This document shows positions 54,432-64,000 of a stretch of DNA of 64,000 bases, piece by piece. The stretch comes from Chitinispirillaceae bacterium. Lineage in GTDB: Bacteria > Fibrobacterota > Chitinivibrionia > Chitinivibrionales > Chitinispirillaceae. A model generated the notes under the pieces. That model did no database searches, was not told where the DNA came from, and was given only the letters and a program-made list of their open reading frames with translations. The DNA is taken from the NCBI GenBank assembly GCA_016930275.1, contig JAFGHA010000108.1, positions 1 to 64,000 on the forward strand, given 5' to 3'. The position numbers and the translations under genes were made by a program. Numbering within the stretch: position 1 is the first letter of the stretch; every line of letters starts with the position of its first letter.

Positions 54432-54860
54432 TCGGACGGTCCGTGATGATAATCCCTGGATAGGGTGAAAATACTCAACCGGGTGGCAGGCAATACACCG
54501 ATTTGATGATTTTTCATCCGGAACGGTTTAAAAAGACGAAAAGGTAAATCCGGGGAAGATTCAAAGGGGCAGGGCAGGGAAAGATAACCGGAACCGTTCG
54601 TGCTTCCCGGAATGTTCCTGCTTAAAAGCGAAGAATCTGTTGTCGGGTTGAGGGGTGCAGTAAGTAGGGGTCACAATCAACAGCCGGGGTTTCCCGACTG
54701 GTAAGTACCCGGCAATACACTTCGCCATGTCTATCACATACTCAAAATGAGAACACTTTTACTGTCTGAGTGATTGAATTTCCTTAAAAAACAGGTATAT
54801 TATTCCTGTAATTGCTTCATCGGAAGAATGCACATCAATTCACCTGAAAAAGGAGGAAGT
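54432..54860. other. Intergenic region, no gene
   Basis: 429 bases without a supported ORF, between divergent genes. It holds the likely promoter of the lipoprotein gene near its right end and a purine-rich stretch (54550-54600). Confidence 0.5.
54774..54801 (+). promoter_or_regulatory. Possible sigma-70 promoter of the lipoprotein gene
   Basis: TTGAAT (54774-54779), 16 bases, TATATT (54796-54801), about 60 bases before ATG 54861. The match is fair and the spacing one base short of ideal. Confidence 0.45.
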
Positions 54861-56171
54861 ATGAGAATAGTTGCGCTGCTCCTTATCGCAGTAGTGTTGT
54901 GGGGTTGCCAGGACCGGGCGGTCAATCCTTCGGTGGTCGACGACCACCAGACCGTGGAATACGGTAAATCAGCGATCACGCTGCCCGGAATGAAGACACT
55001 CGCGGTCGCTCCGGGTGCGGTCTGTAAGTTCACACTGACCATAACGGGAGACGGGATGGAACCGATGACGTTCGCATTTCCGCTGGGCGGCGACGACACG
55101 ACGATGATGATCGAGAAAATTCCCGCCGGACCAATGCGTCTTTTCACCGCTTCGCTGTATGTACCCGAGGGCGGTATGTACGAAGGTTCGGCCGCCACTG
55201 CCATTACGGCGGGTGAGGTTGCCTACGTAAAACTGGTGTTGCGGAAAACCGGTTCCGCACAGATTGACGTTATTATTGAGAGTGGGGACGATATCCCGGC
55301 AACTCCCGGCTGTTTCGCGATCGAGGGAGCAATCGGCGACGTGAAGTTCGGTGGTCTGGTGCTGAAACTGGAGACACTCACTGCAGCCGGTATGCATGCG
55401 AAAATTTTCCGCGGAGAAAAAGAGGTCGGCTATCTCGGAGGTGCGTTGTCACAGGATCATATAAAAGGACGACTGGTTATTGAAGGGATTACCGAAAGCG
55501 CCATGTTCGACGGGTATATGTCAACGGATCACAGTTACCTTAAAGGACAGGTGTATTCAATGGACGATACCTTAAATCCTATAGGTACCTTGTACGGTCC
55601 GGGAACGGTCTGCCCGACAGAACCGCAGGAACCTGAATACGGGTGTTTTTCGCTTGAAGGAAACATTGATGAGGTGGTGTTGAATGACTACGCCTTGAAA
55701 ATTATCGAACAGACGGCAACATCGCTTTCGGGATATTTTTACCTGAAAGGTGAAATGGTCGGAAAATTATACGGAAAACTTGATGGAGGGATGCTTACCG
55801 GTATGCTGGTTATTCCCGGTGTGATCGAACAAGTCTGGCTGGATGGGGGCGTTTCGATGTCCAACGGGATCATATCGTTCATCAAAGTAATGCTGTATGC
55901 CGATGAGGAGCAGCAGACGGTGATCGGACCCATGTACGGAACCGCTACCGATTGCGCCGTCATCGCACCGCCACCGGAAACAACCTGTTTCGTTGATACG
56001 CTGGGCGGCGAAACATCCTGCAAGGATTCCGAAACATGGGTGAAATATGCCGACGAGGAGTGTCGTGCAAAAGGCGGAACCGTTAGCGGCTATTATTTCA
56101 TCGAGCCCTGCGGCAAGGACGAAGATTCGACGTACAGTGTCATGTGTTTTGAATGCTGCGGAAAACAGTGA
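54861..56171 (+). CDS. Lipoprotein with two tandem repeats and a Cys-rich end
   Basis: 436 residues from ATG 54861 behind AAAAGGAGG; the track start at 54774 is 87 bases upstream. Lipobox LWGC. After a ~130-residue beta-rich segment there are two related units of ~105 residues: CFAIEGAIGDVKFGGLVLKLE... and CFSLEGNIDEVVLNDYALKII..., each ending in a GTLYGPGT / GPMYGTAT-like strand. The C-terminal ~60 residues hold nine Cys (CFVDTLGGETSC, CRAKGG, CFECCGKQ). No family recognised. It is probably on the surface or in the periplasm. Confidence 0.7.
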   Translation: MRIVALLLIAVVLWGCQDRAVNPSVVDDHQTVEYGKSAITLPGMKTLAVAPGAVCKFTLTITGDGMEPMTFAFPLGGDDTTMMIEKIPAGPMRLFTASLYVPEGGMYEGSAATAITAGEVAYVKLVLRKTGSAQIDVIIESGDDIPATPGCFAIEGAIGDVKFGGLVLKLETLTAAGMHAKIFRGEKEVGYLGGALSQDHIKGRLVIEGITESAMFDGYMSTDHSYLKGQVYSMDDTLNPIGTLYGPGTVCPTEPQEPEYGCFSLEGNIDEVVLNDYALKIIEQTATSLSGYFYLKGEMVGKLYGKLDGGMLTGMLVIPGVIEQVWLDGGVSMSNGIISFIKVMLYADEEQQTVIGPMYGTATDCAVIAPPPETTCFVDTLGGETSCKDSETWVKYADEECRAKGGTVSGYYFIEPCGKDEDSTYSVMCFECCGKQ

Positions 56172-56340: not shown

Positions 56341-58086
56341 TTACTGCGGCAGGGATGCATTCCGCAATCCCGTCAGAAACCTTCGTGCATTGATGCCGAG
56401 TACGCGGGTGGAGTAACCGCCTTCCTGCGCCACCAGTGTCGGGAGTTTGAGCGCACCGATCAGGTTTCCGTTGAGTTCGAAATCGTGTGCTCCCAACGTC
56501 CAGGTACCGGTCGGATCGCCTTTCGCCGTGTCAAGCCCGAGCGAAACAACCAGGAACATCGGTTTGAACCGGGCGATCCGTTGAACTGCCTGTGTAAGGT
56601 AGCTCCGGTACAGAATACCGTCACACTGTTCGGGGATCGGATAGTTGCAATTATATCCTTTTCCTTCCCCTTCTCCACGTTCCTCCCGGAAACCGCTGAA
56701 ATATGGATAGGCGAAACTCGGATGTCCATGCAGTGAAATGGTAAGCACGTCGCGGCGACGATAGAAAATATCCTGATGCCCGTTCCCATGGTGGTAGTCG
56801 ATGTCGAGTAGCGCGACGGGACCTTCTCGACTGAGCATATTCGCGGCGATTGATGCGTTGTTGAAATAGCAGAATCCGCCGAAGGACCTGAACTCCGCAT
56901 GATGCCCGGGCGGCCGGACCAGCGCGTAGGTTATCCGGGTTCCCCGGAGCAGGAGATCCGCGGCGGTGAGCGTGCAGTCTACCGCATGCCGCGCCGCGGT
57001 AAATGCATTGTTGTTGAGGGGAGTAAAGGTGTCGATACAGTAGTATCCCGCCCGGACGGCAAGTTCCTTGGGCGGACGGGCAGTGTTACGGATCGGAAAG
57101 ACATATGGATACACCGAATTTCCGGGGGCCAGCGTTTCACATACATTACGGAAGTAGTCGATATATTCCTGTTTGTGTACCGCGGTAAGATGCTGTTCGG
57201 AAAAGTGTCGCGGTTCGATCCGCTGAAACAGGTCGTTGTGTTCGATCTCACGCAGGATCGAACTGATGCGCACCGGTGTTTCAACATAGCCGCGGTCATG
57301 CACATGATGAATCGAATGACGGTCGTTGACGACATAGAAGATACGGTGATCGGCCGGTACCTGAACCGCCGGGAGCCGGCGCGGGGTATTTTTTTTCTGA
57401 TACCGGGGGGGGCGTATCGTCAAAACGGGATCAGTTACCGATCCGAAAATTTTTTCCACATAGCCGGGCGGACAGCGTTTTCCGTATTTCAGTTCCAGAA
57501 TCGCGCTGAAAATTTCGCGGGCTTCGCTGTTTGACGGTGGCGGGTTCGTTTCGAGCGGGTCGAAGACCAGATACGGCGGACAATCATCACCCGGCTCGAA
57601 TGGCGTTTCCCAGGCGGTGCCGGTGATCGGCCGTGCGCCGTATCGTTCGTAAAACCGCAACCGTTTCTCATTCTGTCTGAGTACCTCAGGATCACGACAG
57701 AGATTCGGATCGTCGGGAAGACACTCATAGTATAGTCCATTTACTTTAAGAAAGCTCGCCTCATCCCTGATACGTTCGTAAAGCGCTCCGCCGATTCCCC
57801 GGGAAGTGAGCTTTGAAGAAGAGGAAAGATAATCGAGAAAGCAGAACCGGAGGTGCTGTTCATACGAGAGAAGTGCGAATCCCTGTACCGTTCCCCGGCC
57901 GTTTTCGGCGACGAAAAGAATTGACCGGTACCGGAATTTAAGAGGATTGCTCAATTTTTCCTGCAGTGAAGTGACTTCAGCCGGTCGAAGACCGGGAAAT
58001 TGTTCACGCAGTATCTGCTGCACCTGCTCGATCGCCGTACGGTCAATCGGCAGTGTCGTACCGGATACACAGCGAATTCTGAACAT
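56341..58086 (-). CDS. GNAT acetyltransferase fused to histone-deacetylase-family hydrolase
   Basis: 581 residues. The N-terminal ~190 residues are a GNAT domain (SILFVAENGRGTVQGFALLSYEQ, KLTSRGIGGALYERI with the acetyl-CoA loop, LRFYERYGARP). The C-terminal ~330 residues are a class II HDAC/acetylpolyamine amidohydrolase: RPPGHHA, FCYFNNASIAA, LLDIDYHHGNGHQDIFY and LGLDTAKGDPTG provide the zinc and proton-transfer residues. The fusion of an acetylase and deacetylase in one chain suggests a local acetylation cycle on lysine, polyamine or acetate esters. Its target is unknown. Confidence 0.85.
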   Translation of the reverse strand: MFRIRCVSGTTLPIDRTAIEQVQQILREQFPGLRPAEVTSLQEKLSNPLKFRYRSILFVAENGRGTVQGFALLSYEQHLRFCFLDYLSSSSKLTSRGIGGALYERIRDEASFLKVNGLYYECLPDDPNLCRDPEVLRQNEKRLRFYERYGARPITGTAWETPFEPGDDCPPYLVFDPLETNPPPSNSEAREIFSAILELKYGKRCPPGYVEKIFGSVTDPVLTIRPPRYQKKNTPRRLPAVQVPADHRIFYVVNDRHSIHHVHDRGYVETPVRISSILREIEHNDLFQRIEPRHFSEQHLTAVHKQEYIDYFRNVCETLAPGNSVYPYVFPIRNTARPPKELAVRAGYYCIDTFTPLNNNAFTAARHAVDCTLTAADLLLRGTRITYALVRPPGHHAEFRSFGGFCYFNNASIAANMLSREGPVALLDIDYHHGNGHQDIFYRRRDVLTISLHGHPSFAYPYFSGFREERGEGEGKGYNCNYPIPEQCDGILYRSYLTQAVQRIARFKPMFLVVSLGLDTAKGDPTGTWTLGAHDFELNGNLIGALKLPTLVAQEGGYSTRVLGINARRFLTGLRNASLPQ

Positions 58087-59599: not shown

Positions 59600-60220
59600 C
59601 AGGACGGTTGTTTTCGACGGCAGATACCCTTTCAGCATCGGTGACCGTGACTGCGGAAGACAGCGTATCCGACAATCCGGTAACGGTCTAACCCCGAAGG
59701 GAACGGCAAAATTTCCGGTATGGTAACCTATACCGGTGTTCTTCCCGCCGATAAAATGTTTATTCTTCTGTATGCTGAAGCGCATGGTGACTGGATACGC
59801 GGTGTTTCTCCCTTGTCCGACGGGTCGTATACAATCGATAAAACACCCGCCGCAATCGACACCAACGGTGATAAAAAGGCCTAAGCGCTTTCGATCGGTG
59901 ACGATATTCCCGTAAGGTATGAAGGTGGGTCGGTTCCGACCGTGTTCACCATGACTGCTTCGTCGATCAGCAGAAGCACCGATGCGGTTCAACTCCATTT
60001 CACTCTACCTCAAAAAGTATCAGTGGGATTCAGGGTATTTGATCTGACCGGTAAAGTGATCGCCCGGCGGGCGCCGGTGGTGTATGAAGCAGGAGTGTAT
60101 ACGATTGCATGGAACATGTTTGCATCGGCAAACCGGGCAGTAGCGAACGGGACCTATGTCCTGCTGCTCGAAGGCAACCACCGGTACACCTCGCATCAGA
60201 TTCTCAGAATAATCCGGTAG
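59600..60220 (+). pseudogene. Decayed secreted protein with a C-terminal sorting-like domain
   Basis: The frame of the 59942 ORF continues upstream through an in-frame TAA (59882-59884) with coding-like sequence (GMVTYTGVLPADKMF, DGSYTIDKTPAAIDTNGD). Further upstream another frame (TLSASVTVTAEDSVSDNPV) suggests a frameshift near 59680. The C-terminus has a FlgD-like/sorting domain (VFDLTGKVIARRAPVVYEAG, NGTYVLLLEGNHRYTSHQILRII) like those of exported FCB proteins. Upstream is missing; it ends directly after the MATE gene. Confidence 0.65.
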
Positions 60221-60282: not shown

Positions 60283-60304
60283 CCCCGGCGCGGCGGGGTT
60301 TTTT
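60283..60304 (+). terminator. Possible terminator after the decayed gene
   Basis: CCCCG / CGGGG stem with a 6-base loop, followed by TTTTTT. Short and GC-rich; plausible but weak. Confidence 0.4.
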
Positions 60305-60670: not shown

Positions 60671-62008
60671 GTGAACGAAACCAATTGTAGAAACATAATT
60701 CTGATAATCACCATGATCGTGGTGAATACGTCGGCAGTGTTTGACGGGCAGGCGGATTTTATCCTCACCCTGAAAAATGCCTGCCGTACCGACCGGACCT
60801 TCATAGATCTGCGGCAGCAGTACAATCTGACACCGAAATATAACGGTCTGGTCCACGGCTGCATGCCGGTGCGTTGCCCGGCGGATATCAGTCGCGCCAC
60901 GTTCAAACGGCTGCTTGAATCCGATGCCCGTATCGCCTGTGTTGAACCTGATTACCGTATCGATGTCGTCGGGATTCCCGATGATCCCCATTTTTCAAAA
61001 CAGTGGTCGCTGCAGAACCGCTTGACTCCGGGGGCGGATGTCCGGGTGGTTGAGGCCTGGGGACTCCACCGCGGGAGCAAACGAATTATTCTCGCGGTGA
61101 TCGATACGGGTATTGATTACCTGCATCCCGATCTCGCCGCCAACATCTGGCGTAATCCCGGCGAGATTCCCGGTAACAACCGCGACGATGATGGCAACGG
61201 TTTTATCGATGATATATACGGCTGGAGCTTTGCCGAGGGAAACGCCGATCCGATCGATCGTCATTATCACGGTACCCACGTCGCAGGTATTATAGGCGCG
61301 GTTGGAAACAATGGTATCGGTGTGGCCGGTATCATGCACAATGCATCGATAATGGCGGTAAAAGCCCTCAGTGATCAGGGACACGGCTGGTCTTCCGGAC
61401 TGATTGCCGCCATTTATTATGCGGTGGACAACGGGGCGCGGGTTATCAACGCCAGCTGGGGCGGTGGGGGGCGGCAGCAGGCAATGGTCGATGCGCTGGC
61501 GTATGCCGAATCCCGTGGTGTTATCTTTGTGGCTGCATGTGGCAACAATCGGCGCGATACGGATGCAGAGCCATTTTATCCCGCATCGTACGAAGGTCCA
61601 AACGTGGTATCTGTGGGTGCAACCGACACGAAGGATACACTTGCATGGTTCTCCAACTGGGGCGTACAAAATGTGGATATTTTCGCACCAGGTGTTGAGA
61701 TTTTCAGCACGGTTCCCGGCGGTGAATATGCACCCGAGACCGGAACGTCCATGGCCGCGCCGATTGTTACCGGAGCCCTCGGGCTGCTGGTTTCCTTCGC
61801 GCCGTCGATGGACTGGCGCGAGCACATAAACGCTCTGTATGCATCCCTGCAACCGCTGCCGCAGTTGCAGGGGTATTGTGTCACCGGCGGAAGACTTGAC
61901 GTGTACCGGTTGCTGCGCCGGGGCGTACCGCGGGTGAGGGCCATGCAGGCAGCCATAATGTATGTTTCCGGTATGCTTGACCGTAAGAAAGAAAGGAACG
62001 ACAAATGA
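60671..62008 (+). CDS. Subtilisin-like serine protease (S8), exported
   Basis: 445 residues from GTG 60671. An N-terminal hydrophobic signal-like segment (IILIITMIVVNTSA) and a propeptide-like region (~25-100) precede the catalytic domain. Triad: Asp145 (VIDTGID), His203 (HGTHVAG), Ser360 (GTSMAAP); oxyanion Asn292 (ACGNN). The stop overlaps the secretin start (ATGA at 62005), so the protease and secretin are translationally coupled. It is likely to process proteins in the periplasm or at the surface. Confidence 0.93.
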   Translation: MNETNCRNIILIITMIVVNTSAVFDGQADFILTLKNACRTDRTFIDLRQQYNLTPKYNGLVHGCMPVRCPADISRATFKRLLESDARIACVEPDYRIDVVGIPDDPHFSKQWSLQNRLTPGADVRVVEAWGLHRGSKRIILAVIDTGIDYLHPDLAANIWRNPGEIPGNNRDDDGNGFIDDIYGWSFAEGNADPIDRHYHGTHVAGIIGAVGNNGIGVAGIMHNASIMAVKALSDQGHGWSSGLIAAIYYAVDNGARVINASWGGGGRQQAMVDALAYAESRGVIFVAACGNNRRDTDAEPFYPASYEGPNVVSVGATDTKDTLAWFSNWGVQNVDIFAPGVEIFSTVPGGEYAPETGTSMAAPIVTGALGLLVSFAPSMDWREHINALYASLQPLPQLQGYCVTGGRLDVYRLLRRGVPRVRAMQAAIMYVSGMLDRKKERNDK

Positions 62009-63369
62009 GAACCGCTTTCATCCTGATTTCCATCGTGCTGAGCCTGGCTACTGTTTTCGCTCAGAATCTCAAGGACGTCAAATTCTACAATCTCGAAAAG
62101 GAGTATCGGGAAACCGAAACCTTCGTTTACGAGGTGAAACAGGCCGCCGCGCTCGAACTCAAGCAGATCGTCGGTGATATGCTGTCGATTTACGGCTCGC
62201 TCTATGTCAACGAAAAAACCAATCAGCTCTACATCACCGATGTCCCCGAAAAGATCACTGATCTCAAGGAAGTTATCGCCGGGCTCGATACGACCGGCCT
62301 GAAAGCGGGGAACAACCTCGCCTCGAAGGTGATCTACCTGCAGCACGAAAATGTCAGCGAACTCAGCGGGATCATACGCCACAAGCTTTCACCCGACGGT
62401 ACCCTGTTCGAAGTGCCGTATCTCAATGCGATTTCGATCACCGACGTACCAAGCAAAATCGCCGAAGTGGAGGATCTGACCGCACTGCTTGACGTACCGG
62501 GAGCCCACATCGCCATCGAGATCACAGCGGTGGAATTCAACGACGAGCGGTTTTCGCGTCTGGGAATCAATATTTTCAATTGGCTGCAGGGGTTGAGCGT
62601 CCATGCCGACCTGCACGGAATGAACCCCGGTGATCTGAGAAATGCAGGGCAGTATCGGGTTCGCTCCTCGACGGAACGGTACCTTCCCGAAGATGGAAAA
62701 ACCATCAACGAGAATGACCGGAGTAAAACACAGCATCTCGTTGCAGAGGTGAGTGTGGCGGATCTGGTCGGTTTTATCTGCGAAAACGGAGACGGCGCCG
62801 TACTCGCGAATTCGCGTATCGTCACCCGCAACAACAAGGAGGCGATCATCTCGGCCCGGGAAGTCATCCCCTACCGGTTTTACGAGAACGACGAAGCGGA
62901 GCGCAGCAGTCTGGAAGGACAGAAGGCGGCGGGGATATACGTACGGGTGCTGCCCACGCTGCAGCAGGACAGTCTGATCAATCTTGCAATTTTTCCCGTG
63001 ATATCCAATCTCACCGGCTGGAGTCCGAAAGGGGTACCGATCATCTTCGAGCGGACGCTTTCCACCGAAGTCAAGGTGAAAGACAACAGCGTATTCGTGC
63101 TCGGCGGCCTCAAGAAAAAGGAGATCGTTGATGTGCGTCGCGGCATTCCGGGGCTCAAGGACATTCCTGTTCTGCAATATCTGTTTTCCGTCAAAAAACA
63201 GGTGACGGTCGAACGGGAAGTGCTGCTTTTTATCAGGCCGACCACCGAGGTGCGGACCGAGATGGAAGAGGAACAGGTCAGGGGACTTATCGAGCGGTTC
63301 CGGAAAGTTGAAAACAGGGGTCGACCGACACGCAGGGAGCGGAGAGTTAGAAAACAAGGCGAAAAATAA
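62005..63369 (+). CDS. Secretin-family outer-membrane protein
   Basis: 454 residues. The signal peptide ends VFA with Gln next, so the mature protein starts QNLKD. Two N-domain-like units come first (YEVKQAAALELKQIVGDML, VIYLQHENVSELSGIIRHKL). The C-terminal secretin core (ISAREVIPY, VKDNSVFVLGGLKKKE, GIPGLKDIPVLQYLF, EVLLFIRPTTEV) is complete. It is short compared with GspD or PilQ. It ends in an Arg-rich tail (RPTRRERRVRKQ). No other secretion or pilus gene is in the window; its mate is the protease upstream. Confidence 0.9.
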   Translation: MRTAFILISIVLSLATVFAQNLKDVKFYNLEKEYRETETFVYEVKQAAALELKQIVGDMLSIYGSLYVNEKTNQLYITDVPEKITDLKEVIAGLDTTGLKAGNNLASKVIYLQHENVSELSGIIRHKLSPDGTLFEVPYLNAISITDVPSKIAEVEDLTALLDVPGAHIAIEITAVEFNDERFSRLGINIFNWLQGLSVHADLHGMNPGDLRNAGQYRVRSSTERYLPEDGKTINENDRSKTQHLVAEVSVADLVGFICENGDGAVLANSRIVTRNNKEAIISAREVIPYRFYENDEAERSSLEGQKAAGIYVRVLPTLQQDSLINLAIFPVISNLTGWSPKGVPIIFERTLSTEVKVKDNSVFVLGGLKKKEIVDVRRGIPGLKDIPVLQYLFSVKKQVTVEREVLLFIRPTTEVRTEMEEEQVRGLIERFRKVENRGRPTRRERRVRKQGEK

Positions 63370-63630: not shown

Positions 63631-64000
63631 ATGACTTATCATAGAGTTGTTGCGGTCGTTGTGGTATTCGTTTTCGCAGTTTATGCTCAGGACGTGCTCG
63701 CGCCTGCCGAAGAAACTACTGCTGTTCAAAATGACACTACCGCCGGCAGCATCAGCGAAAAGGCAGAAGAAAATTCCGCCGATGAGTGTTATCCTCCCTG
63801 CCGTACGGGGTTTCTTTGTCATCGGGGGGAGTGTATTGAGCGATGCAACCCTCCCTGTCCCGACGGCACCCGGTGCAATGCCCGTGCCGAATGTATTCCC
63901 GTCAACCCTCCACGGCAATTGTCATCCGGCAGACCGCCGGTCGCGACGATTTCCACCGTACCGGCCAATACTTCAATTCGTATCGAAGACGGTGACTGGA
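63631..64000 (+). CDS. Exported Cys-rich protein, cut by the window end
   Basis: ATG 63631 behind GAGAGG. A signal peptide (VVAVVVVFVFAVYA, then Gln) starts the mature chain with QDVLA. After ~30 acidic/Thr residues there are two EGF-like Cys clusters (CYPPCRTGFLCHRGEC and CNPPCPDGTRCNARAEC) and a Pro-rich linker. The frame is open to the end of the window. It is missing from the ORF track because it has no stop. Such Cys repeats precede larger surface domains in related bacteria, often TolB- or PEGA-like. It starts 261 bases after the secretin. Confidence 0.75.
   Translation, partial: MTYHRVVAVVVVFVFAVYAQDVLAPAEETTAVQNDTTAGSISEKAEENSADECYPPCRTGFLCHRGECIERCNPPCPDGTRCNARAECIPVNPPRQLSSGRPPVATISTVPANTSIRIEDGDW

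What the first reader, a model, noticed from the sequence alone, without database searches (positions are those of the whole stretch)
60671..63369. Subtilase and compact secretin translationally coupled
The S8 protease and a short secretin share an ATGA junction. No pilus, type II or type III component accompanies them. A secretin normally needs partners, so this could be an undescribed export/processing unit in which the protease acts on the secretin or its cargo. The Cys-rich exported protein at 63631 is a candidate cargo.
Basis: partly seen in the sequence, partly recalled or inferred. Interest (0 to 1): 0.65.

Follow-up and report, generated by a model that had tools for sequence, protein, structure and literature searches.

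The report
Conserved protease and outer-membrane pore pair
A protein-cutting enzyme gene and a shortened outer-membrane pore gene sit side by side in five Fibrobacterota genomes, always together and never beside the usual pilus or secretion machinery, which suggests a small, so far undescribed export or processing unit.

Summary
An S8 subtilase (60671-62008) and a 454-aa secretin (62005-63369) overlap by ATGA, and both look exported. Among 168 Fibrobacterota genomes, full-length orthologs of each gene occur in exactly the same five genomes, always adjacent, in the same order and strand. The ATGA overlap is in two; the other three have 15-18 nt spacers, so close spacing is conserved rather than the overlap.

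The secretins form one clade apart from the phylum's T2SS, pilus and third-class secretins. All five lack a detectable N0 domain, which normally docks a secretin to its inner-membrane machine; seven of seven control secretins have it. In its place is an invariant peptide, FYNLEKEY. No pilus or type II ATPase lies on any pair contig, no third gene is conserved, and no Tad RcpC was found. The subtilase triad is intact and both genes are under purifying selection.

Best reading: a real two-gene outer-membrane unit in which the protease works at a secretin uncoupled from classical machines. What is cut or exported is inferred. The Cys-rich neighbour as cargo is not supported. Rivals: the protease is itself the cargo, or the secretin is a spare ring for a resident pilus or T2SS.

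The parts
60671..62008 (+). S8 subtilase, 445 aa, GTG start, N-terminal signal-peptide-like stretch
   Evidence: Pfam Peptidase_S8 E=7e-58; best solved relative deseasin MCP-01 3vv3; orthologs in G001, G028, G032, G153
60758..60946 (+). predicted I9-like propeptide (residues 30-92)
   Evidence: strand-helix-strand-helix-strand pattern in the model at pLDDT 70-85; inference from fold, no Pfam hit
61103..61105 (+). catalytic Asp145
   Evidence: invariant in A2 and A4
61268..61270 (+). catalytic His200
   Evidence: invariant in A2 and A4
61748..61750 (+). catalytic Ser360
   Evidence: invariant in A2 and A4
62005..62008 (+). ATGA stop/start overlap of the two genes
   Evidence: sequence; same overlap in G028 only
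62005..63369 (+). secretin, 454 aa, without detectable N0 domain
   Evidence: Pfam Secretin E=4e-31; N0 absent in all five orthologs, present in 7 of 7 controls; orthologs
62083..62106 (+). invariant peptide FYNLEKEY, secretin residues 27-34, at the mature N-terminus
   Evidence: longest invariant run in the five orthologs; predicted unstructured
62119..62304 (+). first KH-like secretin N domain (residues 39-100)
   Evidence: Secretin_N match 39-96; model at low confidence
62320..62490 (+). second KH-like secretin N domain (residues 106-162)
   Evidence: model at pLDDT above 80
62497..63243 (+). secretin beta domain (residues 165-413)
   Evidence: PF00263 match 260-413; model and Foldseek matches to GspD, InvG, PilQ, pIV
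60283..60298 (+). terminator-like hairpin upstream of the pair
   Evidence: consensus scan only, 7 such sites found against 4.7 in shuffles

Best explanation
The two genes form one selected unit: a dedicated outer-membrane pore plus its own exported protease. Both are exported to the periplasm. The subtilase matures by removing its propeptide. The secretin assembles a ring pore in the outer membrane without the N0 domain that would tie it to a T2SS, pilus or T3SS platform. The protease acts at the periplasmic mouth of this pore, perhaps recruited by the invariant N-terminal peptide FYNLEKEY, and matures a passenger that leaves through the pore. Shown: conserved pairing, intact triad, missing N0, no linked machinery, purifying selection. 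Inferred: export, ring assembly, contact between protease and pore, any cleavage, and the passenger.
For: Identical five-genome distribution and adjacency; neighbours change while the pair stays; catalytic triad invariant; N0 missing in 5 of 5 against present in 7 of 7 controls; invariant N-terminal peptide; own clade among secretins; no T2SSE ATPase on pair contigs; no RcpC; dN/dS about 0.15 and 0.12. Precedent for a subtilase that matures an exported protein: OzpA and OmcZ in Geobacter (PMC12307469).
Against: No direct evidence of contact or cleavage and no passenger found. A secretin gate is normally opened by a motor-driven filament or an inner-membrane partner, and none is linked here. 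All five genomes also encode pilus/T2SS ATPases elsewhere. Myxococcus KilC lacks N0 yet works with a Tad-like machine (PMC8460266). Models are of moderate confidence.
Confidence: 0.4

Rival explanations
1. The subtilase is itself the cargo: a dedicated exoprotease with its own outer-membrane exit pore, a minimal two-gene secretion route.
For: Gene order enzyme-then-pore in one unit. The best solved relative is deseasin MCP-01, a secreted protease (its secretion by type II is my recollection).
Against: Ordinary exoproteases use the resident T2SS and need no private pore; no motor or substrate-selecting partner is encoded; no C-terminal sorting domain is seen in the protease.
Confidence: 0.3
2. 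The secretin is a spare or alternative outer-membrane ring for one of the cell's own type IV pilus or type II machines encoded elsewhere, and the subtilase is a substrate or accessory.
For: All five genomes carry T2SSE-type ATPases and other secretin systems. G000 and G032 have an ATPase/PilM locus without a nearby secretin. KilC shows an N0-less secretin can serve a Tad-like machine (PMC8460266).
Against: No N0 to dock the platform. The secretin-less ATPase locus is in 142 of 168 genomes and does not track the pair. No RcpC. Not clustered with the phylum's PilQ or GspD in the tree.
Confidence: 0.2
3. Two unrelated genes kept side by side by shared ancestry or joint transfer, without functional link.
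For: Only five genomes carry them; G000 and G001 are one genus; G028 and G032 share an upstream neighbour.
Against: The five fall into four families and at least two orders, down to about 50% secretin identity, with mostly different flanks; neither full-length gene occurs without the other.
Confidence: 0.08

Closest known systems
Type II secretin GspD and type IV pilus secretin PilQ
   Same: Secretin_N and Secretin domains; Foldseek and profile matches to solved GspD and PilQ rings
   Different: 131-132 bits against curated cut-offs of 284-351; no N0; separate clade; no platform, pilin or ATPase genes nearby
KilC of the Myxococcus xanthus Kil (Tad-like) apparatus
   Same: Short secretin lacking N0 (PMC8460266)
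   Different: KilC belongs to a Tad-like gene set; the Tad RcpC/CpaB family is absent from the five genomes and the Tad secretin RcpA is a weak match, E=7e-9 against 1.5e-27 for GspD. Direct sequence comparison with KilC was not made
Filamentous phage secretin pIV
   Same: Compact secretin; structural match to 7ofh
   Different: pIV has an N0 domain that meets pI/pXI (PMC8563730); no phage genes noted and no relative in viral contigs
Deseasin MCP-01 and thermitase-like S8 subtilases
   Same: Subtilisin fold and triad; 46% identity over the catalytic domain
   Different: Only in the Fibrobacterota group is the enzyme paired with a secretin
Type VII mycosin MycP
   Same: Best NCBIfam hit of the protease; a subtilase attached to a secretion machine
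   Different: 150 bits against a cut-off of 278.75; no type VII secretion gene seen
OzpA/OmcZ of Geobacter sulfurreducens
   Same: A subtilisin-like protease that matures an exported protein (PMC12307469)
   Different: No secretin partner described there; analogy only

Membership tests
Secretin family (PF00263) | Secretin domain above the curated cut-off | tested here: met
   108.2 bits against 27.5, all five orthologs
Secretin family (PF00263) | Forms a multimeric outer-membrane ring | not testable with these tools
   monomer model only
Type II secretion system GspD | NCBIfam GspD equivalog score | tested here: not met
   131.3 bits against 351.35
Type II secretion system GspD | N0 domain for docking to GspC | tested here: not met
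   no STN or GspD N0 match in five orthologs at E<=1; present in 7 of 7 controls
Type II secretion system GspD | Linked GspE/F and pseudopilin genes | tested here: not met
   no T2SSE on the pair contigs (G001 and G028 contigs are short); flank ORFs differ
Type IV pilus PilQ | NCBIfam PilQ score and PilMNOP neighbours | tested here: not met
   132.4 bits against 284.35; the resident PilQ lies with PilMNO on C206
Type III secretion SctC | NCBIfam SctC score | tested here: not met
   75 bits against 238.45
Tad/Kil pilus system | RcpC/CpaB present in the genome | tested here: not met
   no PF16976 match in the five genomes; control found it in Caulobacter
Tad/Kil pilus system | Secretin lacks N0 as in KilC | tested here: met
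   PMC8460266. Shared absence is not evidence of descent
Subtilase S8 | Peptidase_S8 domain with Asp-His-Ser triad | tested here: met
   196.7 bits; D145, H200, S360 invariant
Subtilase S8 | Proteolytic activity | not testable with these tools
   needs an assay
Type VII mycosin | NCBIfam mycosin cut-off | tested here: not met
   150 bits against 278.75

The most novel reading that the evidence does not exclude
A minimal, self-sufficient outer-membrane export or processing system of only two proteins: a secretin that works without an inner-membrane motor because its own subtilase, docked on the N-terminal peptide that stands in place of N0, matures the passenger or opens the gate.
Probability: 0.22. 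Interest if true: 0.85.

Novelty: new variant of a known kind. Interest (0 to 1): 0.55.

Why it matters
Secretins are regarded as the outer-membrane end of larger machines. A conserved secretin without the docking domain, tied only to a protease, would show that the pore can be reused in a much simpler unit, and would give a two-gene test system for how secretin gates open.

Tried and rejected
Cys-rich protein at 63631 as cargo: no homologue in the flanks of the other loci. CHASE2 adenylate cyclase plus small membrane protein as further components: upstream in G028 and G032 only, and common among relatives without the pair. A pilus ATPase/PilM locus without a nearby secretin as partner: its ATPase is in 142 of 168 genomes. 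Tad system: no RcpC. Phage origin: no relative in viral contigs. Plasmids: only GspD-like secretins at about 22-23% identity among the best hits. Desulfobacterota: 0 of 395 genomes at E<=1e-38, a search without a positive control; the Desulfobulbaceae hit L012 matches only in the secretin domain at 31%. Defence: only the generic PADLOC subtilase model and a weak IetS match. Literature: searches for orphan or stand-alone secretins and for subtilase-secretin operons gave nothing relevant, in an open-access library that lacks most subscription journals.

Full report
Observation. The subtilase starts at a GTG at 60671 and stops at 62008; the secretin starts at 62005, so they share ATGA. Pfam gives Peptidase_S8 (E=7e-58) and Secretin plus Secretin_N. 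Both N-termini look like signal peptides by eye. The window is the first 64 kb of a 66 kb contig of a 5.9 Mb draft genome; named relatives place it in Fibrobacterota.

The pair is conserved. A close-relative scan of 84,980 species genomes gave three loci with full-length relatives, all from Fibrobacterota. A profile search over 168 genomes of the phylum gave five full-length secretins (857.9 to 758 bits; the next has 131) in G000, G001, G028, G032 and G153. The same search with the subtilase gave the same five genomes (826.5 to 748.7 bits; the next has 422 and lies inside a larger protein). In all five the subtilase lies directly upstream on the same strand. G028 also has the ATGA overlap; the other three have 15-18 nt between stop and start and a purine-rich ribosome-binding site. 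Tight spacing is conserved, the four-base overlap is not. As a control, about 45 other secretin loci and about 25 other S8 loci held with roughly 1-1.5 kb of flank show no such partner. Identical five-genome sets would arise with p about 1e-9 if genomes were independent; they are not, so this is indicative only. G000 and G001 are one genus; the five fall into four families.

Surroundings. The flanks differ: MATE transporter and Cys-rich protein (window), hisH/hisF (G001), CHASE2 cyclase and a small membrane protein (G028, G032), a putative outer-membrane protein and a PDZ/CsgG protein upstream with a nitroreductase downstream (G153). All-against-all comparison finds no further conserved gene except the CHASE2 cyclase and small protein in G028 and G032. 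That cyclase is in 24 of 41 near relatives, several with the same small protein and no pair behind it, so it is a neighbour rather than a component. Both genes are under purifying selection: dN/dS for G000-G001 is about 0.15 (secretin) and 0.12 (subtilase).

No classical machine next door. T2SSE/PilB/PilT ATPases occur in all five genomes but never on the contig of the pair (the G001 and G028 contigs are short, 15.5 and 7.8 kb). In G000 the three other secretins each sit in their own cluster: with GspE and pseudopilins, with PilMNO, and with pilins, PilM/N and PilT (names by inspection). No Tad RcpC/CpaB was found in the five. An ATPase/PilM locus without a nearby secretin exists in G000 and G032, but that ATPase is in 142 of 168 genomes and does not track the pair.

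Anatomy of the secretin. It scores far below the NCBIfam cut-offs for PilQ, GspD, MshL and SctC and forms its own fully supported clade beside the T2SS, PilQ and third-class secretins of the phylum; its nearest neighbour is uncertain because of long branches. The model (mean pLDDT 69) shows two KH-like N domains (39-100 at low, 106-162 at good confidence), the beta domain (165-413) and C-terminal helices. Foldseek matches GspD, InvG, PilQ and pIV; full-chain superposition is poor, which I ascribe to domain orientation. None of the five orthologs shows an STN/N0 domain even at E<=1, while all seven control secretins of the phylum do. From established knowledge N0 meets the inner-membrane partner (GspC or PilP; for phage pIV the pI/pXI proteins, PMC8563730). 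In its place is a short stretch predicted to be unstructured that holds the longest invariant run of the protein, FYNLEKEY, residues 27-34.

Anatomy of the subtilase. Asp145, His200 and Ser360 are invariant. The model (mean pLDDT 64) shows an I9-like propeptide fold and a subtilisin domain; the best solved match is deseasin MCP-01, 46% identity. Propeptide and C-terminus vary (9% and 6% invariant positions), the catalytic domain does not (39%).

How it most likely works. Shown: a conserved, selected gene pair that codes for an intact-looking exported protease and an N0-less secretin, without linked machinery. Inferred: the secretin forms an outer-membrane pore that is not coupled to a classical platform, and the protease acts at its periplasmic side, most likely maturing a passenger (0.4). 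The simpler reading that the protease is the cargo is close behind (0.3). The spare-ring reading gets 0.2: Myxococcus KilC shows that a short N0-less secretin can serve a Tad-like machine (PMC8460266), so a missing N0 alone does not prove independence. Mere neighbourhood gets 0.08.

Known or new. Both protein families are well known. The open-access literature searched has no description of a subtilase-secretin pair or a stand-alone secretin unit. I file it as a new variant of a known kind (secretin), and not as a member of T2SS, T4P, T3SS or Tad, whose tested defining features were not met.

Limits. Five draft genomes only. The whole-GTDB scan reaches close relatives and could be run once. 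Beyond Fibrobacterota only Desulfobacterota was searched with the profile, without a positive control. No complex could be modelled. In G153 the listed subtilase start lacks the signal peptide; an in-frame hydrophobic stretch lies upstream without a common start codon.

Noticed in passing
window 59942-60220, + strand: Short 92-aa ORF that looks like an isolated FlgD-Ig or type IX sorting-tail domain with no larger protein attached; possibly the remnant of a larger gene.
   Followed up: no
window 56341-58086, - strand: Protein with an N-terminal acetyltransferase-like domain (weak match) and a histone-deacetylase-family domain, that is, both directions of acetylation in one chain.
   Followed up: no
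window 54774-56171, + strand: Exported-looking protein with two similar stretches and a Cys-rich C-terminus that weakly matches the APP copper-binding domain.
   Followed up: no
   Followed up: partly
L071-L078, L088-L091: The next-closest S8 domains in the phylum lie in very large open frames (about 1000-3200 aa); G006 has two S8 matches in one 2262-aa frame.
   Followed up: no
L108 (G000 C207), L111 (G032 C118): A long MshE-like ATPase beside a UvrD helicase, KdsB and a response regulator, with PilM/PilN-like genes but no secretin seen; the ATPase is in 142 of 168 genomes of the phylum.
   Followed up: partly
L011 8640-8726: In G153 the subtilase signal peptide is encoded in frame but without ATG, GTG or TTG, right after the stop of the gene before it: unusual start or sequence error.
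   Followed up: no
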